Shown piece by piece: positions 9,827 through 58,242 of a stretch of DNA of 64,000 nucleotides. Position 1 is the first letter of the stretch. Every line of letters begins with the position of its first letter. Under the pieces are notes generated by a model. The model searched no databases, had not been told where the DNA came from, and saw nothing but the letters and a program-made list of their open reading frames with translations. Source of the DNA: Candidatus Siliceabacter maunaloa (GTDB lineage Bacteria; Actinomycetota; Thermoleophilia; Solirubrobacterales; Solirubrobacteraceae); assembly GCA_024330185.1 (NCBI GenBank), contig JANDLV010000005.1, positions 1-64,000 on the forward strand, given 5' to 3'. A program made the translations under genes and the position numbers.

Positions 9827-10177
9827 ATGGATGTTCGGACCCTCTGGCGCGCGGCGCTCATCCAGGCCGCCCTGGTGGCCGCCGTCGCGGTGACGCTCGG
9901 CCTCGCTCTGGACCGCGACTTCTTCGCGAGCTGGGGATGGCTTGCCGGGCCCGCCGTCTGGTTCGCCTGCGCGCTGGCCACCGCCCGCGCCCTGCGCCTG
10001 CCCATCGGCCCGACCCTCGCCGGAGCCGCCCTGGCCGGCCTACCCAGCCTCATCGCGGTGCCCTTTGGCATCCACTGGGTCGGCGCCGCTGTCGGCATCC
10101 CCCTGTTCGCGGCGTGGTGCGCACGCCTCGCCCAGAGGCACGACCTAGACTCCGCAGCGCCCGCCCCCATGGTCTAG
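9827..10177 (+). CDS. small integral membrane protein, C-terminus overlapping tRNA-Glu
   Basis: A 116-residue protein with four hydrophobic segments (IQAALVAAVAVTLGLAL, WLAGPAVWFACALATARAL, PTLAGAALAGLPSLIAV and GAAVGIPLFAAWCARL), so probably a four-helix membrane protein. I do not recognise a family. The ATG at 9827 starts the first helix-forming segment. Its last five codons and TAG stop lie inside the tRNA-Glu gene that begins at 10163. It is flanked closely by tRNA-Val (28 bases upstream) and tRNA-Glu and may be co-transcribed with them. Confidence 0.6.
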   Translation: MDVRTLWRAALIQAALVAAVAVTLGLALDRDFFASWGWLAGPAVWFACALATARALRLPIGPTLAGAALAGLPSLIAVPFGIHWVGAAVGIPLFAAWCARLAQRHDLDSAAPAPMV

Positions 10178-10235
10178 CGGTCATGACGCCGCCCTTTCAC
10201 GGCGGAGATCGTCGGTTCGAATCCGACTGGGGGTA
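10163..10235 (+). tRNA. tRNA-Glu (UUC)
   Basis: Cloverleaf of 73 nt. The acceptor GCCCCCA pairs with UGGGGGU (one G-U), the anticodon stem CCGCC/GGCGG encloses loop CUUUCAC with anticodon UUC, the T arm has GGUUCGAAUCC, and the discriminator is A. Its first 15 bases are also the 3' end of the membrane-protein gene at 9827. Confidence 0.95.
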
Positions 10236-10258: not shown

Positions 10259-10831
10259 CTAGGTGATCCTGTAGGTGATGCCTCCGGCTGAGAACGGTCG
10301 AGCGCTATTCGTCACGATCACATGTGCACGGGGACCTAGCCACGAGAGCCGCTTCTGTAGCCGTGTCGTCCACGCCAGAACTGCTACGGCCTGCGTCCGA
10401 GGCACCTCGATGCAGAAGAGAACGAGAAGATCCCTGGTCGGTTCTCCTGCCAGCGCAGCGAACCCTTGCGCCTCTGAAGACCGGTTGCCGTCCCCGTCGT
10501 GGGCGAACGTTGCACCGCAGAGAGTGTCGATCACCTTTCGGACGAGACCGGCCATCAGCTTGTCGGAGGTCGCATCCAATGCCTTCTGTGCCCGCTGCGA
10601 CGCGGGGATACTCGTGTGCTCGTAATCCTTGAACTCGGCGACGAGCAGAGTCCGAGGGCCTCTGTTGACGGACACGCCCACGACATCCGAGGCCTTTGTG
10701 GGCACCGCATCGCTGAGTCCGTGGAGTGCTGCTTCGAGATTCCCGATGTACTCGCGTGCAGCATCCCACTTGACGACTGACCAATAGGCGTCAAAGTCGA
10801 GATGCTGGCGCTGTTCGCTGATCGTGGTCAC
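10259..10831 (-). CDS. predicted PD-(D/E)XK-like nuclease partner of an AAA ATPase
   Basis: A 190-residue protein I cannot place in a named family. Residues ~45-75 carry an arrangement typical of restriction-endonuclease-like folds: an Asp in SDVVGVSV, about 15 residues on, then the strand-embedded ExK in LLVAEFKDY. Later strands are LLVLFCIEVP and HVIVTNS. This suggests, but does not prove, a PD-(D/E)XK nuclease. Its ATG overlaps the stop of the upstream ATPase gene by four bases (ATGA), so the two are translationally coupled. GC content is clearly lower than in the neighbouring housekeeping genes, and the pair lies between two tRNA genes, suggesting acquisition by transfer. Confidence 0.6.
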   Translation of the reverse strand: MTTISEQRQHLDFDAYWSVVKWDAAREYIGNLEAALHGLSDAVPTKASDVVGVSVNRGPRTLLVAEFKDYEHTSIPASQRAQKALDATSDKLMAGLVRKVIDTLCGATFAHDGDGNRSSEAQGFAALAGEPTRDLLVLFCIEVPRTQAVAVLAWTTRLQKRLSWLGPRAHVIVTNSARPFSAGGITYRIT

Positions 10832-11930
10832 CGGCTCGAGCGTCGCCCCCGCTGGGACATCTGCTGCGCAATGAGCTGCTGCTCACGGTCGTGGTGATCG
10901 AGGAAGGCCTCCAACAAGGGGTTGCTCTCGAGCTCGCCGAACCGATCCGCGGTTTCCACCCGCACCCCCTCTTCGTCTCGGAGCAGTTGAAAGAAACGCA
11001 CCGAGGCCTCGCTCTTTAGTACATCCCGGTATTCAGACCAACGGGAGATCGCATCGGCTATGAGATAGTCGTGCGTCGCTACCACGATCTGCACACCACC
11101 TTCGGCTAGAGCCCCCAAGCATTCGACGACCACTTCAGCGAGCCGAGGATGGAGGTTCGCCTCCGGCTCGTCCCAGATCAGTAGTCCTCCTTGCCTGAGC
11201 ACTCCATTGTTGATGAGATGTGCGATAGAACCGACCTTGCGAAGACCCTCGGCGAGAAGGTGTGCCTCAAGTCGGCCCTGGGAGCCATAGAGATAGAACC
11301 GCGCGCCCTCGAGGCGGATCTTTCCGCCGAGTTCCTGTTCGAGCCGGTCGACAACCGCTCGTAGCTTCTTGGGCTTGGGACCCCGTAGAGCGGCTGCGCT
11401 GAGCGCCACAGCTGCGTCATAGTAGGTCTCATCGAATGACAGCTCACGCAGCTCGTAGGCAGCCACGAAGCCTTCGTAGATTGCCAGCACCTCGCGGGAC
11501 GGCATGAAGATCGCGGGGACCCCCGTGTCCGGTCGCGGTGATCCACCGTCACTTGCCGTCGTTCTCGGGAAGTCAAGATCGAGACCGGAGTGTTCCCGCC
11601 GGTCGAGATAGTCGCCCGCACCGGATCTCGATCGCTCAGCTCGATGCGAATCCTGCTGTTCGCCTTGCCCTGTACGCGACTCACCAGCCGTCGGATGTCC
11701 CCGTCGTCCGGGCGGAACACAGCAGCGAGCTTCTCGCGAAGCAGTTCTCGAGACGGCACCCCAGGCGTTGCCTCCGGGCCCAGCCCCTTGAGGGTGGCAT
11801 AGAGGGCTTTCGCGGCGAACGTCTTCCCAGTGCTGTTGGCCCCGAGAAGCACGTTGACTCCTGGGCACAACTCGAAATCGGCCTCACCGAAGGGCCCGAA
11901 GCGCTCGAGTGTGACCCGTGTCACCGGCAT
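10828..11930 (-). pseudogene. AAA/OLD-like ABC-type ATPase, frameshifted
   Basis: An ATP-binding protein of about 365 residues if the frame is restored. The N-terminal half reads RVTLERFGPFGEADFEL and Walker A GANSTGKTFAAKAL. The C-terminal half reads, in another frame, GLLIWDEPEANLHPRLAEVV (Walker B with the Q/D-loop typical of AAA_15/AAA_21 proteins) and VVATHDYLIADAI. The frames switch near 11560-11590: the first continues as nonsense after NTPVSIL while the second takes over at DFPRTTAS, so one base appears to be missing. OLD-type ATPases paired with small nuclease partners occur in several phage-defence systems; that role is inferred. It could also be a sequencing error in a live gene. 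Confidence 0.75.
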
Positions 11931-12015: not shown

Positions 12016-12088
12016 TGCGCCCCCCGAGGATCGAACTCGGACCGCCGGTTTAAAAGACCGGAACTCTGACCAATTGAGTTAGGGGCGC
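12016..12088 (-). tRNA. tRNA-Lys (UUU)
   Basis: Cloverleaf of 73 nt on the minus strand. The acceptor GCGCCCC pairs exactly with GGGGCGC, the anticodon stem CCGGU/ACCGG encloses loop CUUUUAA with anticodon UUU, and the T arm has GUUCGAUCC. The discriminator is A; CCA is not encoded. Confidence 0.95.
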
Positions 12089-34261: not shown

Positions 34262-34326
34262 GGCAAGAAAGTCTACCTCGTCTTGGACGGGAACCGAGCC
34301 AGTGTTCCTTGGCCCCGGCTTCGCGA

Positions 34327-35799
34327 CTACTGCGGACGGGCGACGCCGCCCTTGCGCTTGAGCCCAAAGCCCGCGAGATAGAGGTCACCGATGTCGAAGC
34401 GCCCGTCGAGTCGGCGACGGGCGATACCCAACTCCTCGAGATGCTCGGCAAGTTCCGTCGGGTCGGTTGTGGGTGGCCTCGCGTTCTCGCGCCATGCCAC
34501 GTCCTTGAGGGCGCGCTCAAACTCGCGTCGTGGCATCGGCACGCCATAGCTTGCTTCTCGAAACGTCGTTACGAGCGTCGCCATCCACGGAAACTCGGCG
34601 TACTCGTGCTCGGTGAGCTCTCGAACGCGGGCTTCCGAAACCTCATCGAGGGCACCGCGAAGGCTAGTGTGGTGAAGAAGCGCATCTGCGTCGGCTCGGA
34701 TTCGCCGCTCCTCGAAGTCCGCCGCAGCGTCGAGGAGCCGTATGGCCGGCCGAGGAAACAGCAGTCCGTTCCCGTCCTGCAAGTGATTCGGGATCCACCG
34801 AAACGTGTAGCCCTTGCGCGGGCCGGCGCCCATGAAGCGTCCGACTAGGCGTTCGGCGAAACCCGCGAAGCTCTCTTCCGTCCGCTCCCTCGGGACCAAG
34901 CCGAACACCGGATCGGCGTCAAACGTGATCTTTGCCGGCCCGAGATACTGTCGCAGTGGTTCGCTGCCGTTGACCATGCGCTTGACGAGAAGCGCATAGA
35001 TGTCTCCAGCCGTCCACCGCAACTCAACCCCTCCCAGGGCAATCTTGCCGATATCCGGCCCGACGGCGACGCGACGATAGATGTCGGAGCGCAAGAAGAG
35101 CTTCGGCTGAAGTCGCTGATAGCGACGCCCGGTCAATGACCAGAAGCGGACGAGCTCGCCTATTCCAGCGTGCACGGCGGTCCAATCGTCCGGACTCAGC
35201 ACGTCGAGATCGTCGTAGACCACGAAGAGCCAGCGGTCCTGATCGATCAATGCGCGCTCGATGGAGTCCAGCCAGGCGTGTGTCGCGACGGCGAGCTCCT
35301 CGTTACGCAGCCGATCGACCGCCGGGGTCACGTCGCTCGCGGTGAGGTCACCGAGCTCCGCGACAGGCGATGGCGGAAGCGGGAGATTGAGCTCTTGGCT
35401 CCGCAGCGCACGAACAAGCAGCGATAGCCACGCCAGACGGAAGTCTTTGCCCAAGGTCTTGATCCGACGTCCGAGGACGTCGGGTGGAGGAAACGCCGTT
35501 CCCTCGACGGTGAATCCGGTCACCCATGCGGTCCGATCGAGCGGGGTGGCTCGAACGCGATGGCGGTCGGCTATCTCCCCAAGCCTTTTCGACGCCGTCG
35601 AGTCGGTGAGCTGCCGAAACAGCCCGGACTTCCCGGCTCCCTTGGCCCCCAGAACGATCCGCGCCGTCGGCTCGAGCGCACGCAGATGATCCGTGACTGG
35701 CAGGAAGCCGTTGGCGTCGAGCTGATCTGTTTCCGCCGCACCCGCCCCCATGGCGGCTCGGAGATCGCTTAGAAGGGCACGACGCTTCTCAAGCTTCAT
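34327..35799 (-). CDS. P-loop ATPase of a HEPN / KGGVGR-ATPase operon
   Basis: A 490-residue ATPase, third gene of a three-gene operon. Walker A is VLGAKGAGKSGLFRQL (residues ~48-63) and Walker B is RWLFVVYDDLDVLSP (~190). A sensor-like segment (LQPKLFLRSDIYRRV) and a long alpha-helical C-terminal half follow, with no recognisable nuclease or TIR domain. It resembles the Sll1717-type P-loop ATPases often seen in accessory regions. The ATG overlaps the upstream stop (ATGA), so it is translationally coupled to the KGGVGR ATPase. GC content is below that of flanking genes, consistent with transfer. Role in defence is inferred from company, not shown. Confidence 0.75.
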   Translation of the reverse strand: MKLEKRRALLSDLRAAMGAGAAETDQLDANGFLPVTDHLRALEPTARIVLGAKGAGKSGLFRQLTDSTASKRLGEIADRHRVRATPLDRTAWVTGFTVEGTAFPPPDVLGRRIKTLGKDFRLAWLSLLVRALRSQELNLPLPPSPVAELGDLTASDVTPAVDRLRNEELAVATHAWLDSIERALIDQDRWLFVVYDDLDVLSPDDWTAVHAGIGELVRFWSLTGRRYQRLQPKLFLRSDIYRRVAVGPDIGKIALGGVELRWTAGDIYALLVKRMVNGSEPLRQYLGPAKITFDADPVFGLVPRERTEESFAGFAERLVGRFMGAGPRKGYTFRWIPNHLQDGNGLLFPRPAIRLLDAAADFEERRIRADADALLHHTSLRGALDEVSEARVRELTEHEYAEFPWMATLVTTFREASYGVPMPRREFERALKDVAWRENARPPTTDPTELAEHLEELGIARRRLDGRFDIGDLYLAGFGLKRKGGVARPQ

Positions 35800-37073
35800 G
35801 CTTCGAGGCCGGTCCGTTCCCGAATGCGTTGCAGCAGTTCCCCGTAGCCGAGCCCGTCAGGCGGCACGACATCCCCCGCCCCATACAGGATGGTGGGGTC
35901 GAAGCGCACGCCGACCGGAATGTGCTGCGCGTCGCGATCCTGCGGGGAGGGAACGCCGATCAGCTCATCATCCTCGTCCGCATCCTGCGCGTAGTAGACA
36001 TCGGTGAGAACTCCCAGCGCTCGCTCCTCATATCGGCGCATCGCCGTAACGAAAGTCTCGTCGGCTCCCGTGGCGCCCGGTGCCTTCGCGTAGACCAAGA
36101 CGACGTCCTGCTGCGTCATGTCAGCGGCAACTCGTTCTCCACCGATCTGACGAAGCATCAGCGCGACGCCTGCCCAGGACTCGTCAGTGTCGCGACCGAA
36201 CAGCACGGCGAGATGCGGCGTCCCGTTGACCGCAGCGCCGGTGAGGTCGTGCAGCCCGGCTCGTGCGTCGAGGAGCATCACGTCGAAGTGTTCTCGCAGC
36301 TCCCGCAGCATCGTGGCAAGCGGACCACCGTCCGACCGCCCCGGGTCGACGAGCGCCTCGTAGTCGAGTCGCGCGAGCTTCTGCAGGTACTCGGCGTCCA
36401 CAATTCCGGCGGGTAGGACCGTTATGCCCGGATCGTCCCGTGCTGGATACGTCGCGTCGACCGCCGAACTCGATCCGAGCAGTACGTCGACCAGCCCAAG
36501 TGCGACTCCTGACGCATTTCCTACGCCGGCCGATTGCGGCGGCAGGAGAGACAGGACGCCGGGAGCCTCGAGGTCGAGGTCGACGACGAGGACACGTCTA
36601 CCTTCGCGCGCCAAACCCACCGCGGTCGCAGCTAGCGCGGTGCTTCGACCGAAACCGCCCTTATACGAGGCGAAGGTGATGATTGGCGGACGAGGCTCGT
36701 CGAGGTCCCCGACGAGAGCCCAGGGCGCGATCGTAGGCTCGAACCAGTCGTCTTTCGACCTCCGGCGGTCGAGCAGCCGAACTCCGGAGAGGCCGGTTTC
36801 TCGCCCCGCATTCCATGCCGCCTCAACGACCCTTGTATTGGCTCTGCCCGCGGCGAGAATGACGTCGCCGCTGAAGAACGTCCCGAGAGCAGTGGTGAGA
36901 CCGGTCCGGATCTGGGTCGCCAGGGCATCATGGTCGGCGTCCGCTGCAAGACGCGCGGCGACTCGAAGACGCGCAGCGGGGTCCCAGACCAGCACCACCT
37001 GGTCCCCCGGCCGTGCCGCCATCCAGTCCGCAGCCCACTCCTTCGCCGCCTCACGAGCTTCTCCAAAGGTCAC
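35796..37073 (-). CDS. KGGVGR-motif ParA/MinD-like ATPase
   Basis: A 425-residue protein. Residues ~1-140 form an N-terminal domain without clear relatives (REAAKEWAADWMAARPGDQV). The ATPase core has a deviant Walker A, ASYKGGFGRSTALAATAVGL, in which the second Lys of KGGxGK is Arg; this is the hallmark of the KGGVGR variant. Then RRVLVVDLDLEAPGVLSLL (Walker A' and membrane-type loop), DVMLLDARAGLHDL (Walker B) and VVLVYAKAPG. The GTG at 37073 is chosen over the ATG at 37193 because it overlaps the HEPN stop (GTGA), and the upstream extension is arginine-rich shadow. It sits between the HEPN-like gene and the second ATPase. Confidence 0.8.
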   Translation of the reverse strand: MTFGEAREAAKEWAADWMAARPGDQVVLVWDPAARLRVAARLAADADHDALATQIRTGLTTALGTFFSGDVILAAGRANTRVVEAAWNAGRETGLSGVRLLDRRRSKDDWFEPTIAPWALVGDLDEPRPPIITFASYKGGFGRSTALAATAVGLAREGRRVLVVDLDLEAPGVLSLLPPQSAGVGNASGVALGLVDVLLGSSSAVDATYPARDDPGITVLPAGIVDAEYLQKLARLDYEALVDPGRSDGGPLATMLRELREHFDVMLLDARAGLHDLTGAAVNGTPHLAVLFGRDTDESWAGVALMLRQIGGERVAADMTQQDVVLVYAKAPGATGADETFVTAMRRYEERALGVLTDVYYAQDADEDDELIGVPSPQDRDAQHIPVGVRFDPTILYGAGDVVPPDGLGYGELLQRIRERTGLEA

Positions 37074-37477
37074 TGCGTGACCTCGCCATCGAGCCTGAGC
37101 CCGACGAGAGACCCATCGGCGGCGCTGCGTGCCGCATCCACCAGTTCGGCGGCTACGACGTCGGAGATGAGTCCTTCCGCGGCATACCGCCACTTCGGGT
37201 CCCAGCCGTGGTTACGACCGGTGGTGACCGCTTCCGAAGGAAAGCAGCGGTGCCGGTCAGCCCGCTTGACCGTAGCGGAGAGGGCGAGCACTTCGAGCTG
37301 CTCGAGATCGTGGCTGAACGGCACGGAGCCTCCGCCGGGGCCAGCAATGAGCACCTTCAGCGTGCACTCGATGGCGTAGCCCGCCAAGTAGGCCGCGTTG
37401 GCGACGCGGCCGGACATCAGCAGCAGCCCTGCGTCGTCGCTGTGGCGTAGCCCTGACGCGAAGTAATCATCGCTCAC
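37070..37477 (-). CDS. HEPN-like domain protein
   Basis: A 135-residue protein heading the operon. Residues 5-45 (YFASGLRHSDDAGLLLMSGR, VANAAYLAGYAIECTLKVLI) form the two helices typical of HEPN proteins, with the AYLAGYAIECTLK signature. An HDLEQL segment and the WDPKWRYAAE segment follow, also common in that family. A canonical RX4-6H RNase motif is not certain (candidates are RADRHR and GRNH). It starts at GTG. HEPN proteins are frequent RNase effectors or sensors in abortive-infection and toxin-antitoxin systems. The promoter should lie in the 37478-37646 gap. Confidence 0.72.
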   Translation of the reverse strand: MSDDYFASGLRHSDDAGLLLMSGRVANAAYLAGYAIECTLKVLIAGPGGGSVPFSHDLEQLEVLALSATVKRADRHRCFPSEAVTTGRNHGWDPKWRYAAEGLISDVVAAELVDAARSAADGSLVGLRLDGEVTQ

Positions 37478-37646
37478 AGCCCTGACCGTACCCGAGCCTT
37501 CGGCGTCAGCGTCCGCAAACGCGCTCCCGCCTGGCAGACATTGGGAGACGGCGACACTGAGGCGGACACTCGGGCGTAGTCCCGCGGATCTCGAGGGCCT
37601 TGCGGTTGAACCCGAGGAACCAGTCGATGCTCTTCTGGTGGACTGC

Positions 37647-57055: not shown

Positions 57056-57571
57056 GTGTTCGCTGTCAAGCCGTCCAGCGCGAAGGAGGAGTTCGAGCAG
57101 CTTCACAAGCTGCTGGGCACCGCCGCTGTGGCCGAGGTGCTCGACAAGCGCCCGGAGTCGGTGTCGCGTCTCAAGAAGCGCGCGCGCTACACGCGTCCGC
57201 TCGAGCGGTTGATCGACGATGTCTGGACCGTGGTGCACGTGGCCACCACGCGTGCGCACTGGCGGGAGGACCAGGTCCGCGCCTTCCTGCTGCTGCGTCA
57301 GCCGCACCTGGGTCTCAAGCCCGCCGCCGAGCTCATCCGCGCCGGCCGTACAGAGGCGGTGCTCGAGGCGATCCCCACTGCACCGCAGTTGACGGGGCGC
57401 CATCGCGAGCACGCGACGCATCCCCCTCGACGGCGTCGACCCCCGGTCGACCCCGCCGCGCGGGCCGCTGCGCAGCGGCGGTTGGCCGAACGAGGGCTCA
57501 AGGGTCTTGACCGTGAGCGCCTCGCGGCCGCCGGACACGAGGCCTGGGGGACCGCCGGGAACGACTCGTGA
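57056..57571 (+). CDS. MbcA/ParS/Xre-like antitoxin (DUF2384-type domain)
   Basis: A 171-residue protein. Residues ~15-95 read AVAEVLDKRPESVSRLKKRARY (DNA-binding helices) and VHVATTRAHWREDQVRAFLL, and ~82-105 read LRQPHLGLKPAAELIRAGRT, the LGLKPAAELI-AGR pattern of the toxin-binding (DUF2384) domain. The tail is Arg/Pro-rich. It is directly followed by a PIN-domain toxin with a 4-base overlap (GTGA). Most MbcA antitoxins pair with RES toxins; pairing with PIN is the unusual point. Start GTG 57056. Confidence 0.72.
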   Translation: MFAVKPSSAKEEFEQLHKLLGTAAVAEVLDKRPESVSRLKKRARYTRPLERLIDDVWTVVHVATTRAHWREDQVRAFLLLRQPHLGLKPAAELIRAGRTEAVLEAIPTAPQLTGRHREHATHPPRRRRPPVDPAARAAAQRRLAERGLKGLDRERLAAAGHEAWGTAGNDS

Positions 57572-58242
57572 CGCTGCTGGACTGGGGCTCCGACGAGCTC
57601 CTGGTGGACAACTCGATCTACGCACGGCGGGACGACCCGATCGTCGAGGCGCGTTGGCAGGAGGCCACCGAGGCGCGCCAGTTGATCCTGGTGGCGCCGA
57701 TGCTCATGGAGGTGCTGTACTCGGCCAAGAACGGCAGCGCGGCCCAACGGGAGCTGGAGGACCTGGAGGCGGCATACGAGATCGAGCTCATCGACGATGC
57801 CGTTTGGGATCTGGCCATCCAGACGCAGGTCGAACTCGCGAAGGTCGGCAACGGCTACCAGCGGCGCTTCTCCGTCACCGATCTGCTCACCGCCGCACTG
57901 GCGCACCAGCGCGACTACGGCGTCCTGCACTACGACGCCGACTTCGACCAGATCCAACGAGACAGTGGTCTGCAGTTCAGGAGTGTCTGGGCAGCGCAGC
58001 CGCCCAGCCTGGACTCACCACTTGAGCCGGACGCCGACGCCAAGGCCCTGCGCAAGTCCCTGCGTCTCCTGCTTGGGACGCTGGACGACACCGATGACGC
58101 GGACCTACTGTCCCAGTTGTTCGAGTCGCTCAGGGGCCAGGTGCAGGAGGCCGGCCTCAGCGCGTCCCCCGCCTGCCTCCTCGTAAGTAGGAGCCGCGCC
58201 ACGGATAGCCCAGCCCCTCCGAGGTGGTGGACCATCCGCTAG
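57568..58242 (+). CDS. PIN-domain ribonuclease toxin with C-terminal extension
   Basis: A 224-residue protein whose first ~130 residues are a PIN domain: DELLVDNSIYARRDDP (Asp), LVAPMLMEVLYSAKN (Glu), and RRFSVTDLLTAALAHQ (Asp) followed by VLHYDADFDQI (Asp). These four acidic residues form the metal site of the RNase. The last ~90 residues (DADAKALRKSLRLLLGTLDD, LSQLFESLRGQVQEAGL) are helical and extra to a normal VapC. Start GTG overlaps the antitoxin stop. The gene is intact. Confidence 0.82.
   Translation: MTLLDWGSDELLVDNSIYARRDDPIVEARWQEATEARQLILVAPMLMEVLYSAKNGSAAQRELEDLEAAYEIELIDDAVWDLAIQTQVELAKVGNGYQRRFSVTDLLTAALAHQRDYGVLHYDADFDQIQRDSGLQFRSVWAAQPPSLDSPLEPDADAKALRKSLRLLLGTLDDTDDADLLSQLFESLRGQVQEAGLSASPACLLVSRSRATDSPAPPRWWTIR

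What the first reader, a model, noticed from the sequence alone, without database searches (positions are those of the whole stretch)
34327..37477. Three-gene HEPN / KGGVGR-ATPase / P-loop ATPase operon: candidate undescribed system
Seen: three minus-strand genes with 4-base overlaps (GTGA at 37070, ATGA at 35796), a HEPN-like protein first, then a ParA-like ATPase with the KGGFGR variant of the deviant Walker A, then a second ATPase with Walker A GAKGAGKS and Walker B VVYDDLD. GC is lower than in the neighbouring genes. Known: HEPN proteins are common RNase effectors in abortive infection, and KGGVGR ATPases recur in accessory islands. Inference: the HEPN protein is effector or sensor and the two ATPases switch or assemble it. 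I know of no characterised system with exactly these three parts.
Basis: partly seen in the sequence, partly recalled or inferred. Interest (0 to 1): 0.82.

Follow-up and report, generated by a model that had tools for sequence, protein, structure and literature searches.

The report
HEPN plus two ATPases: PDC-M28 trio
This is a real, tightly conserved three-gene bacterial unit (an RNA-cutting-type protein plus two ATP-binding proteins) that a public defence catalogue already lists as an untested phage-defence candidate called PDC-M28; it has been inserted between two housekeeping genes here, and nobody appears to have worked out how it acts.

Summary
In detail: three minus-strand genes with 4-base overlaps, HEPN-like (A), KGGFGR ATPase (B), second P-loop ATPase (C), in the lowest-GC part of the window. 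The 'undescribed' part does not: all three match PADLOC-DB 2.0 models of one catalogued candidate, PDC-M28 A, B and C (1e-12, 2e-52, 2e-62). The trio is a genuine unit: in 59 of 63 testable C loci across many phyla A-B-C stand in the same order, the four exceptions being decayed; distance matrices agree (r 0.95-0.98); in some genomes B and C are fused. A same-genus relative has the empty site. Some trios lie inside BREX-2 or between HmaA and HmaB. A folds as HEPN, best match AF0298 (2hsb), with AbiV further down: it lacks the usual Rx4-6H but keeps E-x3-K, a helix 2-3 histidine and an RY arginine, the 'alternative active site' of that group. C resembles ORC/Cdc6 AAA+ ATPases. B has the P-loop lysine replaced by arginine throughout. 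Best reading: an abortive-infection-type system, A the RNase, B-C the sensor-switch. Defence and mechanism are inferred; no experiment on PDC-M28 was found. New member of a known, uncharacterised kind.

The parts
37070..37477 (-). Gene A: HEPN-domain protein, 135 aa (PDC-M28A), predicted RNase effector with alternative active site E37-x3-K41 / H56 / R97-Y98
   Evidence: (PDLC04558, 1.1e-12)
35796..37073 (-). Gene B: 425 aa, conserved N-terminal region plus MinD/ParA-like KGGFGR ATPase domain (PDC-M28B); P-loop Lys replaced by Arg
   Evidence: NF047398, 148 bits, cut-off 90; PDLC04559, 2.4e-52
34327..35799 (-). Gene C: 490 aa P-loop ATPase of the Sll1717 family (PDC-M28C), ORC/Cdc6-like AAA+ fold with a winged-helix-like C-terminus
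   Evidence: NF047389, 101 bits, cut-off 75; PDLC04561, 2.2e-62
37070..37073 (-). GTGA overlap of stop of A and start of B
35796..35799 (-). ATGA overlap of stop of B and start of C
34262..37646 (.). Inserted segment: absent from the same-genus genome G001, where the flanking protease and acyl-CoA dehydrogenase genes are under 30 bp apart

Best explanation
A horizontally acquired PDC-M28 system, most likely an abortive-infection-type phage defence. A is a HEPN RNase whose active site is the non-canonical one of AF0298/AbiV-type HEPN proteins (histidine between helices 2 and 3, the arginine of the RY motif and the helix-2 E-x3-K). B and C act as one module (they are fused in some genomes): C, an ORC/Cdc6-like AAA+ ATPase with a winged-helix-like tail, senses or binds the trigger (probably nucleic acid or a replication intermediate), and B, a MinD/ParA-like nucleotide-binding protein whose P-loop lysine is an arginine, is a nucleotide-state switch that holds A inactive. 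On infection the B-C state changes, A is released or assembled, and RNA is cut so that the cell stops growing. Shown: genes, order, conservation, predicted folds of A and C, motif conservation, fusion, empty site, embedding in BREX-2 and Hma loci in relatives. Inferred: defence function, RNase activity, who senses and who restrains.
For: All three match PDC-M28A/B/C. Conserved unit in 59/63 testable loci, exceptions decayed; congruent divergence r = 0.95 (A-B), 0.96 (A-C), 0.98 (B-C), Mantel p 0.001. In 396 phylum genomes strong A hits and full-length B hits occur only with the trio; otherwise only the KGGVGR domain is met. B-C fusions with A upstream in four genomes. Embedding: inside BREX-2 on a Thiodictyon plasmid, next to PglX or PglW in Streptomyces, between HmaA and HmaB in a Verrucomicrobium, next to a retron RT. 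A: AlphaFold pLDDT 84, pTM 0.82; the PDB hits with probability near 1 are all HEPN, first 2hsb (AF0298), with AbiV further down; E, C, K and R 60/60, Y 59/60; H56 invariant in 41. Anantharaman et al. 2013 (PMC3710099) describe this alternative site for AF0298 and AbiV. C: pLDDT 89, best hits Cdc6/Orc1, with the BrxC N-terminus among them.
Against: No experiment on PDC-M28 was found; the preprint that defines the candidates is not held, so its own tests could not be read. In this window the trio sits among housekeeping genes, not in a defence island. Foldseek E-values for A are weak (best 0.02) although probability is 1.00. Which ATPase restrains A, and whether A cuts RNA, is not tested. The neighbour comparison (301 PADLOC families matched by 104 near genes, 22 by 90 far genes) counts families, not genes, and near genes are longer.
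Confidence: 0.55

Rival explanations
1. A plain toxin-antitoxin or addiction module: A the HEPN toxin, B the antitoxin (as Anantharaman et al. proposed for a HEPN-ParA/Soj dyad), C an accessory; kept for stability of plasmids and islands rather than for phage defence.
For: HEPN-ParA/Soj dyad proposed as toxin-antitoxin in PMC3710099; trios on plasmids and beside integrases.
Against: That dyad uses the MAE_18760 HEPN family with a conserved Rx4-6H, a different family; the constant third gene C and the B-C fusions are more than an antitoxin needs; embedding in BREX-2 and Hma loci points to defence.
Confidence: 0.2
2. A is a non-catalytic HEPN adaptor (nucleic-acid or nucleotide binder) and the ATPases are the active part, for example blocking phage replication through the ORC-like C.
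For: No canonical Rx4-6H in the window A and none at all in 24 of 60 trio copies; PMC3710099 notes that HEPN domains lacking the motif may only bind.
Against: E-x3-K, a helix 2-3 histidine and RY are conserved across phyla, the same residues as in AbiV, whose depositors call it an RNase.
Confidence: 0.2
3. A housekeeping or regulatory operon of this lineage with no role in conflict.
For: In the window it stands between metabolic genes; no known defence gene adjoins it.
Against: Absent from the same-genus genome at an otherwise collinear site; C found in 2 of 61 relatives and 5 of 396 phylum genomes; lower GC; patchy over many phyla.
Confidence: 0.05

Closest known systems
PDC-M28 (PADLOC-DB 2.0 phage defence candidate; PDC entries from Payne et al. 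2024 preprint, 10.1101/2024.01.29.577857, as cited in PMC12988326)
   Same: All three genes, with profile matches for A, B and C that cover most of each model.
   Different: Nothing found; the window copy is isolated in a housekeeping region instead of embedded in a known system.
AbiV / AF0298-type HEPN proteins (HEPN-T)
   Same: Predicted fold of A, Ex3K in helix 2, histidine between helices 2 and 3, arginine without the canonical H.
   Different: AbiV is described as part of a two-component system; no KGGVGR or Sll1717 ATPase partner is reported.
HEPN (MAE_18760)-ParA/Soj dyad proposed by Anantharaman et al. 2013
   Same: HEPN gene beside a ParA-like ATPase.
   Different: Other HEPN family, canonical motif, no third gene.
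BREX BrxC/BrxD and other ORC/Cdc6-clade AAA+ ATPases
   Same: C has the same general fold and a winged-helix-like end.
   Different: C is 490 aa, of its own family (Sll1717), and comes with A and B rather than with PglZ/PglX.

Membership tests
PDC-M28 | M28A, M28B and M28C proteins all present | tested here: met
   1.1e-12, 2.4e-52, 2.2e-62, covering most of each profile
PDC-M28 | adjacent genes, same strand, order A-B-C | tested here: met
   for the window; for 59 relatives
PDC-M28 | protects against phage | not testable with these tools
   no experiment found
HEPN superfamily (A) | HEPN fold | tested here: met
   prob 1.00 to 2hsb, 4nqf, 1ufb, 1wol; Pfam PF05168 only 15.1 bits, below its cut-off of 22
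HEPN superfamily (A) | canonical Rx4-6H RNase motif | tested here: not met
   none in the window A; where such a string occurs in relatives it is at differing places
AF0298/AbiV-type HEPN with alternative site | Ex3[KR] in helix 2, histidine between helices 2 and 3, arginine kept | tested here: met
   definition from PMC3710099
KGGVGR ATPases (NF047398) | domain above curated cut-off, KGGxGR | tested here: met
   148 bits, cut-off 90; R invariant in 32
Sll1717 ATPases (NF047389) | above curated cut-off | tested here: met
   101 bits, cut-off 75
HEPN-ParA/Soj dyad (MAE_18760) | MAE_18760 HEPN with conserved Rx4-6H, two genes | tested here: not met
   motif absent in the window A, third gene constant; membership of the MAE_18760 family itself was not tested with a model

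The most novel reading that the evidence does not exclude
PDC-M28 is a mechanistically new defence type: an AbiV-like HEPN RNase with a non-canonical active site, kept silent by a MinD/ParA-like protein that binds but hardly hydrolyses ATP (P-loop Lys to Arg in every copy aligned) and triggered by an ORC/Cdc6-like DNA-sensing ATPase, with a compact two-gene subtype in which the two ATPases are one protein.
Probability: 0.3. Interest if true: 0.7.

Novelty: new member of a known kind. Interest (0 to 1): 0.4.

Why it matters
The unit is widespread, compact and, as far as found, untested. The anatomy narrows it to a few point mutations (H56, R97, E37 in A; R143 in B; K57 and D196 in C) that would show whether non-canonical HEPN proteins act as RNases under the control of an ORC-like sensor and a MinD-like switch without the P-loop lysine, a combination without a characterised example in the papers searched.

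Tried and rejected
Undescribed system: rejected, catalogued as PDC-M28. Canonical HEPN toxin site: rejected for the window protein. Phage or viral origin: no relative of C in phage records or viral contigs. Close solved structure by sequence: none for A or C. Ends of the insertion: no flanking repeat of note and no integrase seen. Promoter and terminator scan: nothing above chance. A first alignment was too diverse for the collection scan. A survey of the fused form centred on cyanobacteria was not possible with the tool. A full count of defence genes per neighbourhood could not be made from the family tallies.

Full report
OBSERVATION. The segment has 65.6% GC against 72.7% for the rest of the window and is among its lowest-GC stretches.

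IDENTITY. PADLOC-DB 2.0 names all three: A PDC-M28A (1.1e-12), B PDC-M28B (2.4e-52), C PDC-M28C (2.2e-62). NCBIfam gives B the KGGVGR-motif ATPase domain and C the Sll1717 family, both above curated cut-offs; A has no NCBIfam match and only a sub-threshold Pfam HEPN match. [quoted passage not shown] PMC10855318). No held paper mentions PDC-M28, KGGVGR or Sll1717. So the system is catalogued but, as far as found, not characterised. The preprint behind the PDC entries could not be read here.

CO-OCCURRENCE. A scan of 84,980 species genomes with C gave 72 loci. Of 63 with room upstream, 59 have A and B just before C on the same strand; L046, L052, L060 and L091 are visibly broken. Members occur in Cyanobacteria, Bacillota, Myxococcota and other Deltaproteobacteria, Verrucomicrobia and relatives, Alphaproteobacteria, Streptomyces and Saccharothrix. 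Distances between A, B and C copies correlate at 0.95-0.98. In 396 genomes of the window's phylum, strong hits to A and full-length hits to B are only in trio genomes, while the bare KGGVGR domain also occurs in other ORFs, several of them much larger. More distant Sll1717 relatives can lack A and B (L008, L009; L019 on a Streptomyces plasmid has C without B).

FUSED SUBTYPE. In L010 (same family as the window), L011, L017 and L036, B and C are one protein of about 875-925 aa with A just upstream; L036 carries both forms about 2 kb apart. This is the best evidence that B and C form one functional module.

CONTEXT. In the window the trio is a clean insertion: the same-genus genome G001 has the flanking acyl-CoA dehydrogenase and protease genes less than 30 bp apart. 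Elsewhere it lies inside BREX-2 on a Thiodictyon plasmid, next to PglX in L063 and L073 and next to PglW in L076 and L082 (five PglX matches in the pooled neighbour scan), between HmaA and HmaB in L024, beside a retron reverse transcriptase in L022, and beside integrases on plasmids. It was not found in phage records or viral contigs.

MECHANISM. A: the model (pLDDT 84) is HEPN, nearest 2hsb/AF0298, then 4nqf, 1ufb, 1wol, 1o3u, and further down AbiV. Invariant residues are E37, C38, K41, H56 and R97 in the 41-sequence alignment, with E, C, K and R in 60 of 60 trios; in Streptomyces copies a histidine follows an insertion and is out of register in the larger alignment. The usual Rx4-6H is missing from the window protein. 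Anantharaman et al. state that AF0298 and AbiV typically lack the motif's H, keep its R, and have another conserved H from the insert between helices 2 and 3 that could form an alternative active site, with the conserved acidic residue in helix 2 (PMC3710099). Each of those features is met by A: E37 lies in helix 25-45 and H56 between helices 25-45 and 58-71. B: K138 (signature lysine) is kept but the P-loop lysine is arginine (R143) in all 32 aligned copies, which from knowledge of the MinD/ParA class suggests weak or no hydrolysis. C: Walker A and B intact, fold nearest Cdc6/Orc1, BrxC and PABY2304, with a helix-helix-hairpin end like a winged helix. The proposed order (C senses, B switches, A cuts) is inference.

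VERDICT. A well-supported new copy of an uncharacterised catalogued candidate, with a testable active-site prediction.

Noticed in passing
window 10259-11930 (-): A second low-GC, defence-like pair between tRNA-Glu (10163-10235) and tRNA-Lys (12016-12088): an AAA ATPase matching PADLOC HEC-02A in two overlapping frames (8.9e-59 and 3.1e-19), so probably frameshifted, and a 190-aa gene weakly like HEC-02B (3.4e-4).
   Followed up: partly
window 57568-58242 (+): PIN-domain protein (PF01850, 2.6e-7), VapC-like; no antitoxin partner was looked for.
   Followed up: no
L036:8148-16779: A cyanobacterial contig carries an unfused A-B-C trio and, about 2 kb on, a second A with fused B-C: two subtypes of the system side by side.
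   Followed up: partly
window 37480-37646: About 170 bp of unassigned DNA between the acyl-CoA dehydrogenase stop and gene A, absent from G001; one frame reads AVHQKSIDWFLGFNRKALEIRG and may be the tail of a lost gene.
   Followed up: no
L019:4397-6461: Streptomyces plasmid with a C homologue and a small upstream gene not recognisable as A, and no B: a possible variant or remnant.
   Followed up: no
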